DNA of 32,490 nt. It comes from Thermotogaceae bacterium. GTDB lineage: Bacteria > Thermotogota > Thermotogae > MWEM01. Both the position numbers and the translations under genes were made by a program. Each line of letters starts with the position of its first letter. The stretch's first letter is position 1. The stretch lies in contig JAAYCF010000178.1 in assembly GCA_012744415.1 (NCBI GenBank), positions 1-32,490 on the forward strand. Reading direction: 5' to 3'. Of the stretch, positions 1,969 to 21,473 are shown one piece after another. The notes under the pieces were generated by a model. The model was not told where the DNA came from, made no database searches, and saw only the letters and a program-made list of their open reading frames with translations.

Positions 1969-2597
1969 ATCATCCGGAGAATTTTATAATAGTCCTGGGT
2001 TCAAGCAGCCCAAGACGCAAAGAGCTATGCGCGCGCTTCGGGTTGCCGATTGTCACGGTTGACCCGGATGTCGTCGAAGAAGCGCTGACACAAAGGTTTA
2101 GAATCCCTCAAGAAATCACGACCGAAATCGCGCTGGCAAAACTCCGGGCGACCGAAAGGGCAATGGCGGAGGAATTGGCGGAGAAGATCAGAGGAAAAAA
2201 CCGTGTGCTTATCGCTGCGGATACGATGGTTTTTTTGGGAGAAGAACGCATGGGGAAACCTCAACATCCCGAACAGGCCGAAGAGATGCTGCACAAGCTA
2301 TCAGGCAAATGGCACGACGTGTATACCGGGGTGGGGATGAAGCTTGTTTGGAACGGCTCGCGAGAGCAGCAGATGTATTTTTGCGAACGAACGCGCGTCT
2401 TGTTTCGAAAATTGCCTGATGAAGCGATACAGAAGTATGTGCGTTCGGGAGTTCCTTTGGATAAGGCCGGAGCTTACGGCATACAGGACGAGGGTGGATT
2501 CTTTGTGGACCAGATCAGAGGAGATTTTTACAATGTGATGGGCTTTCCTTTAGGAAGAATATGGGAATTGTTATATAATAACGGTGCGATTCGATGA
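1941..2597 (+). CDS. maf: Maf family nucleotide pyrophosphatase
   Basis: LGSSSPRRKELCARFGLP, LIAADTMVFLGEERMGKPQHPEQAEEMLHKLSGKWHDVYTGV, DKAGAYGIQDEGGFFVDQIRGDFYNVMGFPLGRI. Confidence 0.92.
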   Translation: MVPNLSTDVNHPENFIIVLGSSSPRRKELCARFGLPIVTVDPDVVEEALTQRFRIPQEITTEIALAKLRATERAMAEELAEKIRGKNRVLIAADTMVFLGEERMGKPQHPEQAEEMLHKLSGKWHDVYTGVGMKLVWNGSREQQMYFCERTRVLFRKLPDEAIQKYVRSGVPLDKAGAYGIQDEGGFFVDQIRGDFYNVMGFPLGRIWELLYNNGAIR

Positions 2598-3310
2598 TGC
2601 CTCGAGAGAAGCTGAAGAGATTTGGTTCCGGTAGCCTGACAAATGAAGAGCTATTGGCGATATTGCTGAGGACGGGAACGCCGGAAAGAAACGTTCTGCT
2701 TCTCGCTGAAGAGTGTTTGGGATACTACGAGGGGTCTCTTTATGCGCTCCAACGGGAAACGCTCGAAGGGTTGAGCCGTTTGAAGGGCATTGGGTCGGTA
2801 AAGGCGATTACGATTCAGTCCGCATTGGAATTAGGGGTTCGCTATTACAAAGAGCGCATGGCGCTAAAAACGAAGATAGCCGATCCGGAAGATGTCTTTG
2901 TTTTTTGTTTGGAAATGTCTTTGCTGGACCAGGAGCACGTCCGCGTCCTATCGTTGGATTCGAAAAATCACGTGATCGGTTTTGATGATGTGACGAAAGG
3001 AACGGTGAACGCTTCGCTGATCCATCCGAGAGAGGTATTCCGGAAGGCTATCTTGCATTCGGCGGTAGCGATCATTCTGGTGCATAACCACCCGTCGGGA
3101 GATCCGCTTCCGAGTATAGAGGATCGGAAGATAACGGAAAAAATAACACAAAGCGGTGAACTCCTCTCTATCCCGTGCCGGGACCACGTGATCATCGGGA
3201 AAGGCTGTTTTTACAGTTTTACCGCCGGAAAGACATTTTGGAAGGGAGACATCGAGAATGGAACAGAACCCCGAACTGCAGAAATTGCTGAAGTTGAAAG
3301 AAGCCCTTAA
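2594..3310 (+). CDS. radC: RadC family (JAB/MPN domain) protein
   Basis: GSLTNEELLAILLRTGT, HhH motif LKGIGSVKA, JAB motif ILVHNHPSGDPLPSIEDRKITEK. Confidence 0.92.
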   Translation: MMPREKLKRFGSGSLTNEELLAILLRTGTPERNVLLLAEECLGYYEGSLYALQRETLEGLSRLKGIGSVKAITIQSALELGVRYYKERMALKTKIADPEDVFVFCLEMSLLDQEHVRVLSLDSKNHVIGFDDVTKGTVNASLIHPREVFRKAILHSAVAIILVHNHPSGDPLPSIEDRKITEKITQSGELLSIPCRDHVIIGKGCFYSFTAGKTFWKGDIENGTEPRTAEIAEVERSP

Positions 3311-13049: not shown

Positions 13050-13079
13050 TTGACAATCGGGATTTAAATATGGTATAAC
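13050..13079 (+). promoter_or_regulatory. Promoter of leader 1 / SBP1 transcription unit
   Basis: TTGACA (13050-13055), 18-nt spacer, TATAAC (13074-13079). Closely matches the leader-2 promoter context ATGGTATAACACCCTTAAG. Confidence 0.75.
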
Positions 13080-13110: not shown

Positions 13111-13203
13111 ATGCTTAACCGTTATTACGCTTTAACCATCGCCAATAAAAGTCATTCATTCGCTTTTGCTTTTCGAACAAAGCCCTCGTGTGGTTTTGTT
13201 TGA
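13111..13203 (+). CDS. Leader peptide 1: MLNRYYALTIANKSHSFAFAFRTKPSCGFV
   Basis: 30-codon ORF with upstream SD (gaaggatg). FAFAF precedes the RTKPSCGFV motif shared with leaders 2 and 3. Shared segment differs mainly at synonymous or third positions. Confidence 0.75.
   Translation: MLNRYYALTIANKSHSFAFAFRTKPSCGFV
13176..13200 (+). promoter_or_regulatory. Leader 1 switch hairpin
   Basis: AACAAAGCC(13176-13184)-loop CTCGTGT-GGTTTTGTT(13192-13200), 9 bp with one GU. Contains GCCCTC (13182-13187), complementary to GAGGGC of the terminator (13237-13242). Confidence 0.7.
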
Positions 13204-13231
13204 CTTTTCGTATAAAAAAGCGCAAAACGAC

Positions 13232-13266
13232 AAAAAGAGGGCACTGAAAGAAAGTGCCCTCTTTTT
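13232..13266 (+). terminator. Rho-independent attenuator-terminator 1, upstream of SBP1 start
   Basis: AAAAAGAGGGCACT-gaaagaa-AGTGCCCTCTTTTT, followed within about 12 nt by AAAAGGAGG SD and the ATG at 13290. Confidence 0.88.
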
Positions 13267-13289
13267 ATTTTTTAAAAGGAGGCGTCAAA

Positions 13290-14312
13290 ATGAGAAAAGG
13301 TTTGTTTGTGTTGTTGGTGTGTGTGATTGCGGTAAGCGGGGGGATGGCCATGTTTCGGATCGGGATGACCGCAATTGTCGATCATCCGGCTCTGGAGGCG
13401 ACACGGGAGGGGATCATAGACGAATTGATTCTTAGGGGATTCGCGCTCGGTACCGATTTCGTCGTGGAATTTCAATCGGCTCAAGGGAATATGAGCACGG
13501 CGGTTGCTATCGCCAATTATTTTCGTTCGAATCCGTTCGATCTGGTTGTCGCGATCTCTACGCCGTCGGCTCAAACCTGCGCCAATGCTATCCAAGGCGT
13601 TCCCGTTGTCTTTACGGCGGTAACGGATCCAGTGGATGCCGGGTTGGTTCCTTCCTTGGGTAAGAACCCGGGAAATGTGGTTGGCGTTAGCGATATGACG
13701 CCGGTCAAGACGCAATTCCAATTGATCCGCCTGGTGGTCCCGGAGGCGCGAACGGTCGGTATCGTCGCGAACCCGGGGGAGACGAATTCCCTGATAACGG
13801 TTGCGCACGCGCGCGCCGCCTGCGAGGAGCTGGGGTTTAAACTCGTAGAGATTCCCGGCAGTAATACCTCTGAGATGATAGCGGCCCTCACGGCGACCGT
13901 TGGGCAGATCGATGCGCTCTACGTCGGCACCGACAACACGGCCGCTTCCTGCATCGAATCGCTGCACCGCATCGCGCAGACCAACAAAGTCCCGATGATC
14001 AGCGGCTTCTTCACCCTGGCGCGATCTAACGGCGTGATCTCCTACGGTTTCGAATACTATAACCTGGGTTTGGATACCGGAGCAATCGTGTGGGATCTCT
14101 TGCACGGGAAACCGGTGTCCGAAATCGAATCGCGATTGATGAACGCCAATGCGCTTCTGCTGCTGATCGATTTGGACACGGCGAAAGAGATCGGGCTGTC
14201 GATACCGGAAACGCTACTGGCTCGCGCGGATTACCTCGTCGTCAATGGCGTTCAATGTCGAACGCGCGAATCGGCGCTTTCGGCAGGCATTAACAGCGAT
14301 AGCTGCCCCTAA
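13290..14312 (+). CDS. ABC transporter substrate-binding protein, TrpX/PF04392-like (paralogue 1)
   Basis: Start at 13290 (after SD aggagg) preferred to 13254, which lies inside the terminator. IVDHPALEATREGIIDELI..EFQSAQGNMSTAVAIANYF...GVSDMTPVKTQFQL...VGTDNTAASCIESLHRIA. Confidence 0.88.
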   Translation: MRKGLFVLLVCVIAVSGGMAMFRIGMTAIVDHPALEATREGIIDELILRGFALGTDFVVEFQSAQGNMSTAVAIANYFRSNPFDLVVAISTPSAQTCANAIQGVPVVFTAVTDPVDAGLVPSLGKNPGNVVGVSDMTPVKTQFQLIRLVVPEARTVGIVANPGETNSLITVAHARAACEELGFKLVEIPGSNTSEMIAALTATVGQIDALYVGTDNTAASCIESLHRIAQTNKVPMISGFFTLARSNGVISYGFEYYNLGLDTGAIVWDLLHGKPVSEIESRLMNANALLLLIDLDTAKEIGLSIPETLLARADYLVVNGVQCRTRESALSAGINSDSCP

Positions 14313-14318
14313 GCTATT

Positions 14319-15188
14319 CTACGATTTTTGAAAGCGGGTTAAGATACGGTCGACCGCTTTTTTTGCGGTCGGCGTCGTCGCAAGACCCCCCAATCCGGTT
14401 TCACGCAATTCCATCGGTAACGTCCGCCCGATCCGGCGCATCGCGTCGACGGTTTCATCGAACGGAATCACGGAGGAAACTCCCGACAAGGCCAATTCCG
14501 CAGCAGAGATCGCTGCGGTCACCGCGATCGCGTTCCGCTTGACGCAGGGGACCTCGACGAACCCGCCAACGGGATCACACACAAGACCTAACAGAGATTT
14601 TAGTACCAGAGCCGCCGCCGAATCGACCATTTCAGCGTCACCGCCGCTTAAGTAAGCCAATGCGCCCGCCGCCATAGCGGCCGCGCTGCCAATCTCCGCC
14701 TGGCAGCCACCTGCTGCTCCAGCCAAGGTCGCTTTCGTCGCGATGACGTTTCCGATGGCGCTCGCGAGAATATACCCCGGTAGAAGATGATCGAAAGGGA
14801 TTTCGTTTTCTTTCGCAAGCGCATAAAAAACACCGGGAATGACCCCGCTGGCGCCCGCGGTGGGGCACGCTACGACCCTTCCCATTGAAGCGTTGCTCTC
14901 GCAGATCGAGAGGCTGGCGACGATGGCGACATGGGTAAACGGGCTGTGATAAAGAACGCCGCGATCATATACTTTTTTGGCGTTTGTTCCGGTTAAACCG
15001 GTGAGGGTTTCCTGCACTTTCCCGTATTGTTTTTCAGATTCTTCCAAAATCACGCGCAGGAACTCCCCCAGTTGCGCGCGCGTCTCTTCCGGGTTGTTTC
15101 CCGTTTCAGACAGTTCGGCTACCAGAGCCGCTTCATGCAATGGGAGCTTGGTTTCTGATGCCATCTGTTTGATGCCGTTGAATGTCAC
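14319..15188 (-). CDS. sdaAA: L-serine dehydratase, iron-sulfur-dependent, alpha subunit
   Basis: NASMGRVVACPTAGASGVIPGVFYAL, GGCQAEIGSAAAMAAGALAYLSGG, CDPVGGFVEVPCVKRNAIA. Confidence 0.94.
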   Translation of the reverse strand: MTFNGIKQMASETKLPLHEAALVAELSETGNNPEETRAQLGEFLRVILEESEKQYGKVQETLTGLTGTNAKKVYDRGVLYHSPFTHVAIVASLSICESNASMGRVVACPTAGASGVIPGVFYALAKENEIPFDHLLPGYILASAIGNVIATKATLAGAAGGCQAEIGSAAAMAAGALAYLSGGDAEMVDSAAALVLKSLLGLVCDPVGGFVEVPCVKRNAIAVTAAISAAELALSGVSSVIPFDETVDAMRRIGRTLPMELRETGLGGLATTPTAKKAVDRILTRFQKS

Positions 15189-15880
15189 CGACCCTCGCCT
15201 CCCTTGCCTTGAATTGGCGCAGAGAGGCTTTTTACGTAGTAAGCCTCCTGAATTACCGATAAAGACTTGATTTCCAAGAGACTCCTCAACGTGAGGTCGC
15301 TGTCTAGTTCGACGATGGTGAGAGCTTTTGCCAGGAGTTTATTGATTCTTCGAAGGTAAAGATTCGCCACATTCGCGTCGATTTTCTCTAAAATCATGCC
15401 TAAAGCGCGTGGGGTGTCTTTATTCACGAGAATGAGGGTCGGGTATGCTCCCGAAAGATCGCAATCGACACCATTGATTTTGATGATTCGGATCATTCCG
15501 GCTCCCACAGAAGAAGCCCAGATTTCCTGCGGCATGGCGCCATCGTAAAGAAGCATCTTGACCGTATTGGGGTGAACCTCTCCCAGATCCTCCTGTTGGA
15601 AGGAGAAGTCCAAACCTCGAGAGAGGGCTAACGCGAACGCGTTTTTTACCGCCCGATCAGCATCTCCGAAACCCATCACGCCCCCCAGCAGCGCCCGATC
15701 GGTTCCGTGTCCCATATAGGTTTGGCCGAAAGACTGATGAAGGAAAAACTCGGCTTTATCAGGTGTTTTGCCTAAAAAATAGTTGCCGAAACGTCCGATC
15801 CGAAGCGCCCCTAAAGTATGAGAACTCGAAGGGCCTATCATGACAGGGCCTCCTACATCGAGTAGCGACACATCCGACAC
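15185..15880 (-). CDS. sdaAB: L-serine dehydratase, iron-sulfur-dependent, beta subunit
   Basis: LLDVGGPVMIGPSSSHTLGALRIG; FGQTYMGHGTDRALLGGVMGF; ACT-like C-terminus. 4-nt overlap with sdaAA. Confidence 0.94.
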   Translation of the reverse strand: MSDVSLLDVGGPVMIGPSSSHTLGALRIGRFGNYFLGKTPDKAEFFLHQSFGQTYMGHGTDRALLGGVMGFGDADRAVKNAFALALSRGLDFSFQQEDLGEVHPNTVKMLLYDGAMPQEIWASSVGAGMIRIIKINGVDCDLSGAYPTLILVNKDTPRALGMILEKIDANVANLYLRRINKLLAKALTIVELDSDLTLRSLLEIKSLSVIQEAYYVKSLSAPIQGKGGEGR

Positions 15881-15985
15881 CTCCTGGTATTTTGCTCTTC
15901 GATTCTATCATGGACGGCTCGGTTTCTTTTTTCGTTTTTTAATGGCAACCGTAAACGAGCCTTCTTTCTCGATTTCAAGACGGAT

Positions 15986-16015
15986 TTGACAAACGGGGCC
16001 TAATTATGGTATAAC
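15986..16015 (+). promoter_or_regulatory. Promoter of leader 2 / SBP2 operon
   Basis: TTGACA (15986-15991), 18-nt spacer, TATAAC (16010-16015), then ACCCTTAAG as at leader 1. Confidence 0.75.
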
Positions 16016-16045
16016 ACCCTTAAGATTTCGAAAGGATCGATGGGT

Positions 16046-16141
16046 ATGATGGAGATGTCAATCAGGACAGTATCCGTTTCCGTGAATGTATATGGCTTTT
16101 GGTATCGAACGAGGCCCTCTGGCGGTTTCGTTTGTCTTTGA
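16046..16141 (+). CDS. Leader peptide 2: MMEMSIRTVSVSVNVYGFWYRTRPSGGFVCL
   Basis: 31-codon ORF with SD-like aaaggat. YGFWY precedes RTRPSGGFV. The start may be at 16046, 16049 or 16055. Confidence 0.75.
   Translation: MMEMSIRTVSVSVNVYGFWYRTRPSGGFVCL
16108..16132 (+). promoter_or_regulatory. Leader 2 switch hairpin and alternative pairing element
   Basis: AACGAGGCC-CTCTGGC-GGTTTCGTT, 9 bp with 2 GU. Alternative: GTTTCGTTT (16125-16133) pairs AAACGAAAT (16148-16156), and GCCCTCT (16114-16120) pairs AGAGGGC (16160-16166). Confidence 0.72.
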
Positions 16142-16156
16142 GTATATAAACGAAAT

Positions 16157-16195
16157 GGAAGAGGGCACCGAAAAGAAGGTGCCCTCTTTTTTTTT
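16157..16195 (+). terminator. Rho-independent attenuator-terminator 2, upstream of SBP2 start
   Basis: AAGAGGGCACC-gaaaagaa-GGTGCCCTC followed by a long T tract; AGGAGG SD follows immediately, ATG at 16207. Confidence 0.9.
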
Positions 16196-16206
16196 AGGAG
16201 GTCAGG

Positions 16207-17190
16207 ATGAGGTTCAAAGGTCAGCTGTTTTTCTGTTTGTTTCTGTTTCTCGCGTTATCTGTTTTTAGTCTAACGAGGATAGGCATTACCGCTATTACCG
16301 ACCATCCGGCTTTGGACGCGATACGTTTTGGGATTATCGACGGGTTGATCCAGGAAGGGTTGGTTCTCGGTCAGGATTTCGAATTTGAGTTTCAATCGGC
16401 GCAAGGCAACATGAGCACCGCTTTGGCGATTGCCAACCACTTCAATTCCAACGCTTTCGATCTTGTCGTGCCAATCACCACCCCCTCTGCGCAAGCGTGC
16501 GCGAACGTGATCAAAAACAAACCTGTCATTTTCAGCGCCGCGACCGATCCAGTGGCCGCTTCCCTGATTCCGGCTTTAGGAAAAAACCCGGGGAATGTGG
16601 TGGGAGTAAGCGATATGACGCCGGTTAAAACCCAAATACAACTGATGAAATTGGTTGTCCCCGGGTTAAGGCGGATCGGGATTATGACCAACCCGGGCGA
16701 AGCGAATTCGACGGTGCTGAAAGACCATGCGCAGATCGCCTGCTCGGAATTGGACATCGAATTGGTCGAAGTCGTTGGGACAAACACCTCAGAGATGATC
16801 GCCGCCCTCAGCGCGATCGTCTCCGCCATCGATGCGATTTATATCGGAACGGACAATACGGCCGCTTCATGCATCGAATCTCTACACCGGATTGCCCTCG
16901 CTCAAAAAACACCGATCATTTGCGCCGATATTTCAATGTCTCGATCCGGAGGCATGATTGGCTACGGATTCGATTATTACGCGTTCGGAATCGATACGAG
17001 CCGCATGGTATTGGAAATCATCCGGGGTAAAACGCCTTCAGAGATCGAATCTCGTCTCATCGGGCCGGAGTCTTTGCAACTACTCATCAATTTGGACTAC
17101 GCGAAACAAATCGGGTTAATGATACCGGAAGCGTTGATCGCGAGAGCTTCTTTTATTATCGAAAACGGAGTTGAAAGAGAGATTAAATAA
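16207..17190 (+). CDS. ABC transporter substrate-binding protein, TrpX/PF04392-like (paralogue 2)
   Basis: Signal peptide; ITDHPALDAIRFGIIDGLI...EFQSAQGNMSTALAIANHF...GVSDMTPVKTQIQL...IGTDNTAASCIESLHRIA. Confidence 0.9.
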   Translation: MRFKGQLFFCLFLFLALSVFSLTRIGITAITDHPALDAIRFGIIDGLIQEGLVLGQDFEFEFQSAQGNMSTALAIANHFNSNAFDLVVPITTPSAQACANVIKNKPVIFSAATDPVAASLIPALGKNPGNVVGVSDMTPVKTQIQLMKLVVPGLRRIGIMTNPGEANSTVLKDHAQIACSELDIELVEVVGTNTSEMIAALSAIVSAIDAIYIGTDNTAASCIESLHRIALAQKTPIICADISMSRSGGMIGYGFDYYAFGIDTSRMVLEIIRGKTPSEIESRLIGPESLQLLINLDYAKQIGLMIPEALIARASFIIENGVEREIK

Positions 17191-17207
17191 CGGATCGGGG
17201 TGTTTTC

Positions 17208-18230
17208 ATGCTGGGGATCGTGGAACAAGGCTTGATTTTAGGATTGATGTCCATCGGGGTGTTTATTTCTTTTCGTATTGTCAATATGGCGGACCTGACC
17301 GTTGACGGAACCTTTGCGCTCGGGGGCGCGTTATGCGTCAGACTCTTCTCACTAGGACTGAATGCGCCGGTCTCTCTTCTCTTGAGTCTTTTAGCGGGCG
17401 CGGGTGCCGGCATTCTAACCGGATTTCTGCACCGCAAGTTGAAAATCAACGTTTTGCTTGCCGGTATCTTGGTCATGACGATGCTCTATTCCATCAATCT
17501 TCGGATTATGAATGGGCCCAACCTTCCGATTCCAAAAACGTCCGTGAGCGCTTCTTTGGGCACTTTTGAACAGGTAGCCGGAAAAGATCCGCTTGCGGAT
17601 TTATTTGAGCCTTCCGCCCCCGCCGCCGCGCCTCAGAAAGAAATCGCGAAACATAGAACCTTCGAGAACATCTTCCTCGGGACGGCGGACGGTCAAGATC
17701 TTCTGCTCCTGTCCGCGATCGTCCTGATTTGCGTCGCCTTGACCGGTCTCTTTCTTCGGACCGAACTGGGTACCGCTCTGCGCGGATTTGGAACGAATCC
17801 GTCCGGACTGGAATCCTTCGGATTGCCCAAGACGTTGATGACCTTGTTGGGTTTGGGTTTGGCCAATGCCTTTGTGAGCCTTTCGGGTGGGATATTCGCG
17901 CTATACAGCGGATTTGCGGATGTTACGATGGGGCAGGGTATGATCGTAACCGGCCTGGCGGTCGTGATGCTTGGGGAGATCTTGTTCGTCAGGAGAAAGC
18001 TCGTCTACGGTATCTTCGCCCCGATCTTGGGTGGCATCGTCTATCAGGGGATTTTAGCCGTTGTGATGCGGTACGGCTACCGGATCGGATTCCGAGCGAG
18101 CGACATGAAGCTGCTCACCGCGCTTTTCATCGTGGCAGTCATCGGGTTTGGGTTGATTCAGACGAAAAAACGCATGAAAGGGAAATTTCGTTTATCTACC
18201 ATTTTTGGTGGGGGTGTGGGCCGTGATTAA
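17208..18230 (+). CDS. ABC transporter permease (TrpY-like, BPD_transp_2 type)
   Basis: Polytopic; ADLTVDGTFALGGALCVRL, GTALRGFGTNPSGLESFGL, GGIFALYSGFADVTMGQGMIVTGLAVVMLGEIL; located 17 nt after SBP2. Confidence 0.9.
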   Translation: MLGIVEQGLILGLMSIGVFISFRIVNMADLTVDGTFALGGALCVRLFSLGLNAPVSLLLSLLAGAGAGILTGFLHRKLKINVLLAGILVMTMLYSINLRIMNGPNLPIPKTSVSASLGTFEQVAGKDPLADLFEPSAPAAAPQKEIAKHRTFENIFLGTADGQDLLLLSAIVLICVALTGLFLRTELGTALRGFGTNPSGLESFGLPKTLMTLLGLGLANAFVSLSGGIFALYSGFADVTMGQGMIVTGLAVVMLGEILFVRRKLVYGIFAPILGGIVYQGILAVVMRYGYRIGFRASDMKLLTALFIVAVIGFGLIQTKKRMKGKFRLSTIFGGGVGRD

Positions 18231-18990
18231 ACTGTCTGATGTCAGTGTGGTCTATCGAAAGGGTGAAGAGAACGAAAAATGCGCGTTGAAAAACGCAACG
18301 CTGCAGATCTCTCAAGGAGATTTTGTGATCATCGTCGGGCCGAACGGGGCAGGAAAGTCGACCCTCATGAAGGTATTGCTGTGCGAATTGGCGCCGACGG
18401 TAGGAACTTACTACTTAAATGGAAAATCAATGCGGGGGTTTTCTGTGACACAAGTGGCGCGTTGGGTCGGGCGTGTTTTTCAGGATCCAAACTCCGGCAT
18501 CTTTCCCGACCTCTCCATATTGGAGAATCTGTCGATAGCCTCTAAAAAAGGAGTTCGATGGCTGCGATTTCGAAGCTGTCCGCAAAAGGCGGTGTCCTTA
18601 CTCTCTCTTCTGGGATTGGGCTTGGAGAAAAACCTGAACACTCGGGCGGGTGACCTTTCAGGGGGACAGAAACAAGCCCTGGCGATGATCATGGCGATCA
18701 TTTCGGATCCCAAAGTCCTGCTTCTGGATGAGCATACCGCCTCTCTGGATCCGAAAAGCTCGGTCAAGGTCATGGAACTGACGCGTCAAATCAACGAACA
18801 GTTTGGGATCACGGTTGTGATGATTACCCATAATATGCCCTTTGCGGAACAATACGGAAACCGGAAATGGAAGATCGAAGAGGGTGAGGTTTACGAGTAC
18901 GAGTACCGACCGCCCGTCTGCTTGACCCGTTCGGAAAACCCGTTTCCGCTCGTGGGGGATCAGCGGCGCTGCGCGCCGAAATGCGTTTGA
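18205..18990 (+). CDS. ABC transporter ATP-binding protein (TrpZ-like)
   Basis: Walker A GPNGAGKST, signature LSGGQKQALAM, LLLDEHTASLDPKSS. Overlaps the permease; a GTG start at 18223 is also plausible. Confidence 0.92.
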   Translation: MVGVWAVIKLSDVSVVYRKGEENEKCALKNATLQISQGDFVIIVGPNGAGKSTLMKVLLCELAPTVGTYYLNGKSMRGFSVTQVARWVGRVFQDPNSGIFPDLSILENLSIASKKGVRWLRFRSCPQKAVSLLSLLGLGLEKNLNTRAGDLSGGQKQALAMIMAIISDPKVLLLDEHTASLDPKSSVKVMELTRQINEQFGITVVMITHNMPFAEQYGNRKWKIEEGEVYEYEYRPPVCLTRSENPFPLVGDQRRCAPKCV

Positions 18991-19103
18991 CCTTTGAAAA
19001 CGTCCGATATCTTTACATGAAGCCGCCAAGCTTGGCGACAGGTATTTTTAACACTGCGGCGAATGAATTATCGAAGCGTCGCGACGAAAGGATGTACAAA
19101 AAA

Positions 19104-19214
19104 ATGCGCAAAGAGAAAACGTGGATGCTTAAAATTAATGAAAGTGAGAACCAAATATCCCTTTACGCTTATTATCGGGCAAAGCCCTCCTGCGGCTTTG
19201 CTTTTCTTCCGTGA
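19104..19214 (+). CDS. Leader peptide 3: MRKEKTWMLKINESENQISLYAYYRAKPSCGFAFLP
   Basis: SD gaaaggatg at 19086-19093. YAYY precedes RAKPSCGFA, aligned to leaders 1 and 2. The start may be at 19104 or the internal ATG at 19125. Confidence 0.72.
   Translation: MRKEKTWMLKINESENQISLYAYYRAKPSCGFAFLP
19178..19202 (+). promoter_or_regulatory. Leader 3 switch hairpin
   Basis: GGCAAAGCC(19178-19186)-CTCCTGC-GGCTTTGCT(19194-19202), 9 bp. GCCCTC (19184-19189) is complementary to GAGGGC (19239-19244). Confidence 0.7.
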
Positions 19215-19236: not shown

Positions 19237-19268
19237 AAGAGGGCATCGGAAACATGATGCCCTCTTTT
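19237..19268 (+). terminator. Rho-independent attenuator-terminator 3, upstream of SBP3 start
   Basis: AAGAGGGCATC-ggaaacat-GATGCCCTCTTTT, then AAAGGAGGAG SD and ATG at 19289. Confidence 0.88.
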
Positions 19269-19288
19269 ATTTTAAAGGAGGAGTCAAA

Positions 19289-20269
19289 ATGAAAAAAATG
19301 TTGTGGGTGCTTCTGTGTGCAGTAGTAATGAGCGTTTTCGGGTTTTCGACCGTAAGGATTGGGATCACCGCGATTGTCGATCACCCGGCGTTGGATTCCG
19401 CGCGGCTGGGGATCATCGAAGCGTTGGTTCAGCGGGGATTCGTTCTCGGAACGGATTTCGTCGTAGAGTTTCAATCGGCGCAAGGGAATATGAATACGGC
19501 GGTATCGATCGCCAATCATTTCCGATCCAGCGACTTTAGTCTGGTTGTCGGCATCTCAACTCCTTCGGCGCAAACGCTCGCGAACGCGATTAAGGATATT
19601 CCGGTGGTCTTTACCGCGGTCACGGATCCGGTAGCTTCCTCCCTGGTTCCATCCCTTGGGAAGAATCCGGGCAATGTCGTGGGGGTAAGCGATATGACCC
19701 CGGTGAAAACCCAGTTTCAACTGTTGAAATTAGTCGTTCCGACGGCTCAAAAGGTTGGGATTGTCACCAATCCGGGGGAAGCGAATTCGGTGATCGTGAC
19801 CGAACACGCGCGGCAGGCTTGCGAAGAGCTTGGATTAAGGCTGATCGAGGTCGTCGGCAGCAATTCTTCCGAGATGATCACGGCGCTGACGGCCGCGGTC
19901 GGGGAGTTGGACGCGCTTTATGTTGGAACAGACAACACCGCCGCTTCCTGCATCGAATCCTTGCATCGGATAACGGTGTCTAACAAGGTTCCCATGATGT
20001 GCGGAGACTTCACGCTCGCGCGCTCGGGTGGCGTGATGGCCTATGGTTTCGACTACTTCAACCTGGGTTTGGATACCGGCAAGATCGTCTGGGAGATCCT
20101 CAACGGGAAACCCGTCTCGGATATAGAATCGCGGTTGATGAACGCGGACTCCCTCCTGCTGCTGATCAATATGGATGTCGCGGAGGAGATATCCCTGGCC
20201 ATTCCGGATCTATTGATCGCTCGCGCAGATTTTCTCATCGTGAACGGTTCAGAACAACAAAAGCGTTAA
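19289..20269 (+). CDS. ABC transporter substrate-binding protein, TrpX/PF04392-like (paralogue 3)
   Basis: IVDHPALDSARLGIIEALV...EFQSAQGNMNTAVSIANHF...GVSDMTPVKTQFQL...VGTDNTAASCIESLHRIT. ATG at 19289 after SD; the listed 19211 start overlaps the attenuator. Confidence 0.9.
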   Translation: MKKMLWVLLCAVVMSVFGFSTVRIGITAIVDHPALDSARLGIIEALVQRGFVLGTDFVVEFQSAQGNMNTAVSIANHFRSSDFSLVVGISTPSAQTLANAIKDIPVVFTAVTDPVASSLVPSLGKNPGNVVGVSDMTPVKTQFQLLKLVVPTAQKVGIVTNPGEANSVIVTEHARQACEELGLRLIEVVGSNSSEMITALTAAVGELDALYVGTDNTAASCIESLHRITVSNKVPMMCGDFTLARSGGVMAYGFDYFNLGLDTGKIVWEILNGKPVSDIESRLMNADSLLLLINMDVAEEISLAIPDLLIARADFLIVNGSEQQKR

Positions 20270-20328: not shown

Positions 20329-20934
20329 TTACAACCCGTACTTGCGCAGCAGATCGTCGACCGCTTCTCGGAGCAACGCGGATTCGGTCTTTTGGGTTTT
20401 TGTGGATAACTTGGAAAGCCCTTCCAGTTGAGAGGACAAAAAATAACTCGATTTGAGGACCATCTTTTGTTCTCTCGATCCGGGGGCGAAGACCAGCCGG
20501 TTTTTCCCTTGTTTCTTGGCGAGCATTAACCCCTCTGAGCAAAGATTCAACAATTTGACGACATTGTCCGCGGTTCTTCCGAACTCTCCCACGGAACCGC
20601 TCACTTGGACATCGATCTCTTTCTCGTCGAACGCGACCTTCTGCGCGGCGATCTTTTTACGGACCTCTTCCAGTTCCATGAACATCGCTTCAAGAGAGCA
20701 ATTAGACGAATACACGTAGAACTCGTCTCCGAAACGACGGACGAAAAAGCCTTCTGGTAAACAGATCTTGAGCGTTTCCTCGACGTGCGCGAGAACGTGG
20801 TCCCCTCCGGCTCGTCCGTAACGGGCATTGATCGACTCGAAACAGTCGACGTCCAAATCCCCCAAAGTCAACCCTTCGTTTTGAGCAACGGTTATCAATT
20901 CTTTTGAAAACTCATCGAATTCATTTTTCGACAT
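20329..20934 (-). CDS. GGDEF-like domain protein with variant FGDEF motif
   Basis: DVDCFESINARYGRAGGDHVLAHVEETL...FFVRRFGDEFYVYSSN...VQVSGSVGE...LMLAKKQGKNRLVF. Confidence 0.82.
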   Translation of the reverse strand: MSKNEFDEFSKELITVAQNEGLTLGDLDVDCFESINARYGRAGGDHVLAHVEETLKICLPEGFFVRRFGDEFYVYSSNCSLEAMFMELEEVRKKIAAQKVAFDEKEIDVQVSGSVGEFGRTADNVVKLLNLCSEGLMLAKKQGKNRLVFAPGSREQKMVLKSSYFLSSQLEGLSKLSTKTQKTESALLREAVDDLLRKYGL

Positions 20935-21230: not shown

Positions 21231-21306
21231 GCTCCCGTCGTCCAGTGGTCTAGGACATCGCCCTTTCAAGGCGGAAACCGGGGTTCAAACCCCCGCGGGA
21301 GCGCCA
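21231..21306 (+). tRNA. tRNA-Glu (anticodon TTC), CCA encoded
   Basis: Cloverleaf: acceptor GCTCCCG/CGGGAGC, anticodon loop CTTTCAA, T arm CGGGG-TTCAAAC-CCCCG, terminal CCA. Confidence 0.93.
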
Positions 21307-21315
21307 TCTTCGTTT

Positions 21316-21390
21316 GGGCGCGTAGCTCAGCGGGAGAGCGCCTGCCTTACAAGCAGGAGGTCGCAGGTTCAAAACCTGCCGCTCCCACCA
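21316..21390 (+). tRNA. tRNA-Val (anticodon TAC), CCA encoded
   Basis: D arm GCTC-AGCGGGA-GAGC, anticodon arm CCTGC-CTTACAA-GCAGG, T arm GCAGG-TTCAAAA-CCTGC. Acceptor GGGCGCG/CGCTCCC has one mismatch. Confidence 0.9.
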
Positions 21391-21397
21391 AGTTAAC

Positions 21398-21473
<76 letters not shown>

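What the first reader, a model, noticed from the sequence alone, without database searches (positions are those of the whole stretch)
13111..19214. Conserved leader-peptide family: aromatic cluster + R-[TA]-[KR]-P-S-[CG]-G-F
The three short ORFs align as FAFAF-RTKPSCGFV, YGFWY-RTRPSGGFV and YAYY-RAKPSCGFA. The codons CGA/CGA/CGG, ACA/ACG/GCA, AAG/AGG/AAG, CCC, TCG/TCT/TCC, TGT/GGC/TGC, GGT/GGT/GGC, TTT/TTC/TTT, GTT/GTT/GCT differ largely at third positions, as expected for translated sequence. The N-terminal halves are unrelated. The conserved P-S-x-G-F tail lies after the aromatic codons, so it may be constrained by the RNA hairpin, by a nascent-peptide arrest role, or both.
Basis: partly seen in the sequence, partly recalled or inferred. 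Interest (0 to 1): 0.88.

Follow-up and report, generated by a model that had tools for sequence, protein, structure and literature searches.

The report
Aromatic amino-acid attenuators of TrpX transporter
Three short leader genes ahead of three aromatic amino-acid receptor genes in a Thermotogota bacterium look like ribosome-read transcription switches; the peptide ending they share is conserved because it encodes the switch's RNA hairpin, and in genomes with several receptors each leader appears tuned to a different aromatic amino acid.

Summary
Three leader ORFs (13111-13203, 16040-16141, 19104-19214) end in R-[TA]-[KR]-P-S-[CG]-G-F, and this genome has exactly three motif matches. Each is followed by an intrinsic terminator and a TrpX-type receptor gene. 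The shared tail is RNA constraint, not a peptide signal. It encodes an 11-bp hairpin with compensatory changes; the Thr-to-Ala and Val-to-Ala changes in leader 3 are the two sides of one base pair. The Pro-Ser codons (GCCCUC) are the antiterminator strand for the terminator's GAGGGC. All 47 TrpX leaders from 40 Thermotogota genomes have an aromatic-codon cluster, then a strand complementary to the terminator arm. Tail peptides differ between families, and two orthologues have it truncated or frameshifted with the RNA pairing kept. Best reading: ribosome-mediated transcription attenuation sensing aromatic aminoacyl-tRNAs. No T-box was found in 103 genomes. Most interesting: single-copy leaders read mixed aromatics. 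In three independent receptor expansions a mixed leader stays on trpXYZ, while receptor-only copies read only Phe, Tyr or Trp. The Phe-only copies of the window lineage also lose the acidic pocket residue that binds the Tyr hydroxyl in CD0873. New variant of a known kind.

The parts
13050..13079 (+). sigma-70-like promoter of leader 1 (TTGACA-18-TATAAC)
   Evidence: read from sequence; the block ATGGTATAACACCCTTAAG recurs before leader 2
13111..13203 (+). leader peptide 1, Phe-type cluster FAFAF then RTKPSCGFV*
   Evidence: orthologue in G006 FVFAF-RTKPSCGFV
13174..13202 (+). hairpin P1 of leader 1 (11 bp, encodes the conserved tail)
   Evidence: fold z -4.83; pair counts
13182..13187 (+). segment 2, antiterminator strand GCCCTC (Lys-Pro-Ser codons)
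13235..13267 (+). intrinsic terminator; 5' arm holds GAGGGC (segment 3, 13237-13242)
13290..14312 (+). TrpX-type substrate-binding protein, copy 1 (pocket position 1 = Phe)
   Evidence: PF04392 E 2.5e-66; pocket
15986..16015 (+). sigma-70-like promoter of leader 2 (TTGACA-18-TATAAC)
   Evidence: read from sequence
16040..16141 (+). leader peptide 2, mixed cluster YGFWY then RTRPSGGFVCL*
   Evidence: G006 YYFWY-KTRPSVGFVCL
16106..16134 (+). hairpin P1 of leader 2; segment 2 GCCCTCT at 16114-16120
16159..16195 (+). intrinsic terminator of leader 2; segment 3 AGAGGGC at 16160-16166
16207..17190 (+). TrpX-type substrate-binding protein, copy 2 (pocket position 1 = Asp), first gene of trpXYZ
   Evidence: PF04392 E 3.5e-74
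17208..18230 (+). TrpY-type permease
   Evidence: PF02653 E 2.4e-20
18223..18990 (+). TrpZ-type ABC ATPase
   Evidence: PF00005 E 7.1e-28
19104..19214 (+). leader peptide 3, Tyr-type cluster YAYY then RAKPSCGFAFLP*
   Evidence: G006 VYAYY-RAKPSCGFAFFP
19177..19203 (+). hairpin P1 of leader 3; segment 2 GCCCTC at 19184-19189
19237..19270 (+). intrinsic terminator of leader 3; segment 3 GAGGGC at 19239-19244
19289..20269 (+). TrpX-type substrate-binding protein, copy 3 (pocket position 1 = Asp)
   Evidence: PF04392 E 1.7e-73

Best explanation
Each leader is a ribosome-mediated transcription attenuator sensing charged aromatic tRNAs. When Phe-, Tyr- or Trp-tRNA is scarce, the ribosome stalls on the aromatic codons just before the hairpin and covers its 5' strand (the Arg-Thr-Lys codons). 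This frees the GCCCUC strand to pair with GAGGGC of the terminator's 5' arm, forming an antiterminator, so RNA polymerase reads through into the receptor gene. When the tRNAs are charged, the ribosome runs through GCCCUC to the stop codon, that strand is masked or re-folded into P1, the terminator forms and transcription stops. The conserved tail peptide is a by-product of these two overlapping RNA constraints. The window's genome reads Phe in leader 1, Tyr in leader 3 and mixed aromatics in leader 2. Leader 2 heads trpXYZ, so one permease and ATPase may be served by three separately gated receptors. Shown by computation: ORFs, alternative pairings, covariation, phylum-wide recurrence, gene context and codon specialisation. 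Inferred: actual stalling, termination, and receptor ligands.
For: The same architecture precedes all 47 TrpX genes examined in 40 of 103 genomes. The antiterminator segment folds better than dinucleotide shuffles in 47 of 47 (mean z -4.7), and at least 7 bases of the terminator arm pair with a strand starting 1-9 nt after the last aromatic codon. Segment 2 and 3 sequences change together between families: GCCCUC/GAGGGC, AACGUCCUUUCU/AGAGAGGACGUU, AGACACCCAAU/AUUGGGUGUCU, GGCAUCCAC/GUGGAUGCC. P1 and terminator show 97.7% paired cells against 42-58% when slid, with 4 pairs changed on both sides. An aromatic-cluster ORF at that position has shuffle p <= 0.01 in 42 of 47. The three solved relatives bind aromatic amino acids: Phe 3LKV, Tyr 6HNI, Trp 3LFT (PMC6816091). 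The genome and its sisters lack a trpE match, and the genome lacks a PDT (pheA) match, fitting dependence on uptake. No T-box match in 103 genomes.
Against: There is no expression, ribosome-profiling or termination data. In family f7 the antiterminator strand starts only 2 nt after the last aromatic codon, so a stall on that last codon would mask part of it; stalls earlier in the cluster are needed. Leader-peptide N-termini drift freely, so purifying selection on the amino-acid sequence could not be shown. Leaders of close relatives are not independent observations.
Confidence: 0.9

Rival explanations
1. Nascent-peptide arrest: the conserved RxKPSxGF tail (with the aromatic block) stalls the ribosome through the exit tunnel in response to a ligand, as TnaC or macrolide leaders do.
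For: The tail is conserved among three paralogues and their orthologues.
Against: Tails in other families are unrelated (RRNVLSSDSSS, KDTQLGAFH, QVPSWRNLSVLT) with the same RNA logic. G051 stops right after KDT and G025 is frameshifted in the tail, both keeping the RNA pairing. The tail lies after the aromatic codons, so it is not yet made when the ribosome reads them.
Confidence: 0.03
2. An untranslated structured RNA (riboswitch, protein-binding leader or tRNA-binding T-box) switches the terminator, and the ORF is incidental.
For: Strong RNA structure with alternative folds; TrpX of S. suis is T-box regulated (PMC9382623).
Against: No Rfam match apart from tRNAs in the window; no T-box in 103 genomes; open frames and aromatic clusters adjacent to segment 2 in 47 of 47 although the RNA sequence differs entirely between families.
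Confidence: 0.04
3. The tail is similar only because the three cassettes are recent duplicates; no functional constraint.
For: The receptor genes are paralogues (60-71% identity) and share a tree clade.
Against: N-terminal halves of the leaders have diverged beyond recognition while the hairpin shows compensatory changes, and the architecture recurs in families with unrelated sequences.
Confidence: 0.02

Closest known systems
Ribosome-mediated attenuators of enterobacteria (trpL, pheL, hisL; from general knowledge and PMC3766115)
   Same: Short leader ORF with regulatory codons, mutually exclusive hairpin, antiterminator and terminator, upstream of genes for the same amino acids.
   Different: Phylum Thermotogota; controls an ABC receptor or transporter instead of biosynthesis; single-copy leaders mix Phe, Tyr and Trp codons; no match to Rfam Trp_leader. 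PMC3766115 suggests such attenuators originated in gamma-proteobacteria with very few horizontal transfers.
T-box control of trpXYZ in Streptococcus suis (PMC9382623)
   Same: Same transporter family, transcription attenuation that reports tRNA charging.
   Different: A T-box binds uncharged tRNA directly; here a ribosome reads codons and no T-box match was found.
uORFC-13-1 motif upstream of aroF in Acholeplasma (PMC8632094)
   Same: Predicted Phe-codon uORF directly before an intrinsic terminator at an aromatic amino-acid gene.
   Different: Different gene, lineage and structure; no multi-copy codon specialisation reported there.
TrpX/CD0873-type aromatic substrate-binding proteins (3LFT Trp, 6HNI Tyr, 3LKV Phe; PMC6816091)
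   Same: The regulated genes belong to this family.
   Different: The NCBIfam TrpX equivalog cut-off is not reached (about 219-229 bits against 390), so a Trp-specific role cannot be assumed.

Membership tests
Ribosome-mediated transcription attenuator | Short translatable leader ORF with start codon and ribosome-binding site | tested here: met
   Open frames in 47 of 47, nearly all with an SD-like sequence before the start; the start of G063-G065 is ambiguous and G005 is cut by the contig end
Ribosome-mediated transcription attenuator | Cluster of codons for the relevant amino acid at the position where a stall would free the antiterminator | tested here: met
   Aromatic clusters ending 1-9 nt before segment 2; shuffle p <= 0.01 in 42 of 47
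Ribosome-mediated transcription attenuator | Mutually exclusive terminator and antiterminator, with an upstream hairpin | tested here: met
Ribosome-mediated transcription attenuator | Starvation-dependent read-through that depends on leader translation | not testable with these tools
   needs a reporter or RNA experiment
Rfam Trp_leader (RF00513) | Match to the covariance model at gathering score | tested here: not met
   cmscan of the window found only three tRNAs
T-box (RF00230) | Match to the covariance model | tested here: not met
   0 of 103 Thermotogota genomes; only 5 of 14 control genomes ring and filters were strict, so sensitivity is limited
Arrest-peptide leader (TnaC, SecM, Erm type) | Conserved peptide sequence needed for arrest | tested here: not met
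   Tail not conserved between families, truncated in G051, frameshifted in G025
TrpXYZ aromatic amino-acid ABC transporter | PF04392 receptor with BPD_transp_2 permease and ABC ATPase in one operon | tested here: met
   for window genes 16207-18990; the same gene order, judged by eye from ORFs, in G005, G017, G018, G022, G045c and others
TrpX equivalog NF041285 | Score above the curated cut-off of 390 bits | tested here: not met
   219-229 bits

The most novel reading that the evidence does not exclude
One aromatic amino-acid ABC transporter is served by several receptors, each switched by its own leader peptide whose codons match that receptor's ligand. This arrangement arose independently in three Thermotogota lineages by narrowing an ancestral mixed Phe/Tyr/Trp leader to a single-amino-acid leader, together with a change in the receptor pocket. 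Leader codons could then be used to read receptor ligands from sequence.
Probability: 0.5. Interest if true: 0.75.

Novelty: new variant of a known kind. Interest (0 to 1): 0.62.

Why it matters
Amino-acid leader-peptide attenuation has been described mostly in gamma-proteobacteria (PMC3766115), with Actinobacteria also known (PMC1262725), and the papers I could search describe none in Thermotogota. Finding it at every TrpX gene examined there, and at trpE in one family, suggests it is a major regulatory mode in a phylum where no T-box was found. The natural series of mixed and narrowed leaders, with a partly matching pocket change, makes it directly testable whether regulation and receptor specificity split together after gene duplication. 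It also offers a sequence-only guide to transporter ligands.

Tried and rejected
The tail as a peptide signal was rejected on cross-family comparison, the G051 truncation and the G025 frameshift. T-box and Rfam leaders were searched and not found. A synonymous/nonsynonymous test of translation was uninformative because leader N-termini drift freely and nonsynonymous differences dominate. A first scan for trpE ORFs failed through a bad motif and was redone by position; for several loci of families f9-f11 that redo picked other ORFs, so absence of leaders there is not established. An early extraction gave G017a and G017b the same ORF and a wrong one for G058; this was corrected. The pocket test is only partial: in G045 the single-aromatic copies a (WWW) and b (FSFF) keep Asp, and pocket position 2 is Tyr in all 40 receptors, including those with Trp-only leaders, so the Gln reported for the Trp-binding SP1069 is not seen. 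Serratia and Moraxella TrpX homologues (L018, L010, L024) show no obvious leader of this kind on inspection.
Full report
What is there. It holds three cassettes. Each has a leader ORF, a hairpin, an intrinsic terminator and a gene for a PF04392 substrate-binding protein of the TrpX type. Cassette 2 continues into a permease and an ABC ATPase (17208-18990), giving trpXYZ; cassettes 1 and 3 encode only a receptor.

Why the tail is conserved. The codons for R-T-K-P-S-C-G-F-V form an 11-bp hairpin, P1. On the six f1-family leaders (three from the window, three from G006) P1 and the terminator have 97.7% of cells paired, against 42-58% when the partner is slid, with four pairs changed on both sides. 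In leader 3 the Thr-to-Ala change (ACA to GCA, column 4) and the Val-to-Ala change (GTT to GCT, column 26) are the two sides of one A-U to G-C pair. In leader 2 the third-base change ACA to ACG (column 6) pairs with TTT to TTC (column 24). The same stretch contains GCCCUC, complementary to GAGGGC in the 5' arm of the terminator, so it must satisfy two alternative pairings. That is enough to freeze the peptide.

Phylum-wide test. A TrpX profile finds relatives in 40 of 103 Thermotogota genomes. I took the upstream DNA and found in all 47 copies a leader ORF with an aromatic cluster, and a terminator 11-63 nt after its stop. Folding the stretch from the last aromatic codon to the end of the terminator's 5' arm gave z-scores below -1.64 in 47 of 47 (mean -4.7), with the terminator arm paired to a strand that begins 1-9 nt after the last aromatic codon. 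Families use different words with matched partners: GCCCUC/GAGGGC in f1, GCCCUCUUCC/GGAAGAGGGC in f8, AACGUCCUUUCU/AGAGAGGACGUU in Mesotoga, AGACACCCAAU/AUUGGGUGUCU and GGCAUCCAC/GUGGAUGCC in f7. The tails are accordingly different peptides: RRNVLSSDSSSVCLS, RGRPSSGIPPKPLGT, KDTQLGAFHYLLASK, QVPSWRNLSVLT. In G051 a stop falls right after KDT, and in G025 the tail is frameshifted (RRNVLSWTPPLCA); both keep the RNA pairing.

Is it translated. Nearly all leaders begin behind an SD-like sequence, no frame is broken before the cluster, and a cluster-bearing ORF at that place is unlikely in shuffled sequence (p <= 0.01 in 42 of 47). N-terminal halves drift freely, as expected if only frame and stall codons matter. 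This supports translation but is not a measurement.

Mechanism. By analogy with trp and phe attenuation (established knowledge), a ribosome stalled on the aromatic codons masks the 5' side of P1 and frees GCCCUC to form the antiterminator; a ribosome that runs on, or no ribosome, lets the terminator form. The stalling and termination steps are inferred.

Specialised leaders. Taking the five codons adjacent to P1, the 36 leaders of single-copy genomes always contain at least two different aromatic residues, usually Tyr with Trp and Phe (YAYWF, AYWWF, YFWYW). Seven of the 11 leaders of the four multi-copy genomes (three genera) contain one kind only: FAFAF and LYAYY in the window, FVFAF and VYAYY in G006, NLWWW in G017b, NNWWW in G045a, IFSFF in G045b (peptides, counted by eye). 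All three multi-copy genera have such leaders and none of the 13 single-copy genera does (1 in 560 by Fisher's exact test, computed by hand; relatedness and the larger number of leaders per multi-copy genome are not corrected). A tree of the receptors places the three expansions separately. In each, the mixed leader sits on the copy that heads permease and ATPase (window copy 2, G017a, G045c), and narrowed leaders sit on receptor-only units. The G045c receptor reading frame holds a run of masked bases, so its integrity is unknown.

Receptor pocket. Structures of relatives hold Phe (3LKV), Tyr (6HNI) and Trp (3LFT); PMC6816091 names two selectivity positions, and CD0873 Glu-263 bonds the Tyr hydroxyl. 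The equivalent position is Asp in all 33 receptors with mixed leaders that were extracted and in the Tyr-leader copies, and Phe in the two Phe-leader copies and in the Trp-leader copy G017b. G045a and G045b keep Asp, and position 2 is Tyr throughout, so the match holds in two of three lineages.

Context. The window's genome has no match to the trpE model or to prephenate dehydratase (genome 91% complete), so it probably depends on uptake of at least Trp and Phe. No T-box was found in 103 genomes, with limited control sensitivity. In family f7, trpE itself is preceded by a Trp leader ending NWWWHLG, so leader-peptide attenuation is used beyond TrpX there. Two Bacillota loci (L021, named Halobacteroidaceae, and L022) also have aromatic-rich leader ORFs before a terminator and TrpX, so the arrangement may cross phyla.

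Novelty. Literature searches found no description of these leaders. The library lacks most subscription papers, so an earlier prediction (for example in the 2010 comparative study of attenuation by Lopatovskaya and colleagues, cited in PMC4833913) cannot be excluded. The mechanism is a known kind; the lineage, the transporter target, the mixed aromatic codon set and the repeated narrowing after duplication are new variants.

Noticed in passing
L131, L135, L136, L137, L140, L141, L145, L146 upstream of trpE (family f7): Trp-codon leader peptides (for example MFDQENLFLKTPKLKNNTINIINWWWHLG*), most with a terminator found before trpE; classical trpL-like attenuators in Thermotogota. The G045a TrpX leader ends in the same NWWWHL although G045 has no trpE match, which suggests a leader recruited from a lost trp operon.
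   Followed up: partly
L021 about 460-883; L022 about 2580-3001: Bacillota TrpX genes are preceded by an aromatic-rich ORF (MGRQNSFFTSSYYSYYYYPRKRE*, MGHLNSFFTSFYYSYYYYPKKRE*) and a terminator.
   Followed up: partly
window 20329-20934 (-): A 201-aa protein joins a GGDEF domain (PF00990) to a C-terminal ribbon-helix-helix domain (PF12651), an unusual pairing.
   Followed up: no
window 14319-15880 (-): Two ORFs that look like the alpha and beta halves of an L-serine dehydratase lie between cassettes 1 and 2 on the opposite strand (recognised by eye, not tested).
   Followed up: no
window 21231-21473: tRNA-Glu, tRNA-Val and tRNA-Phe cluster about 1 kb downstream of cassette 3.
   Followed up: no
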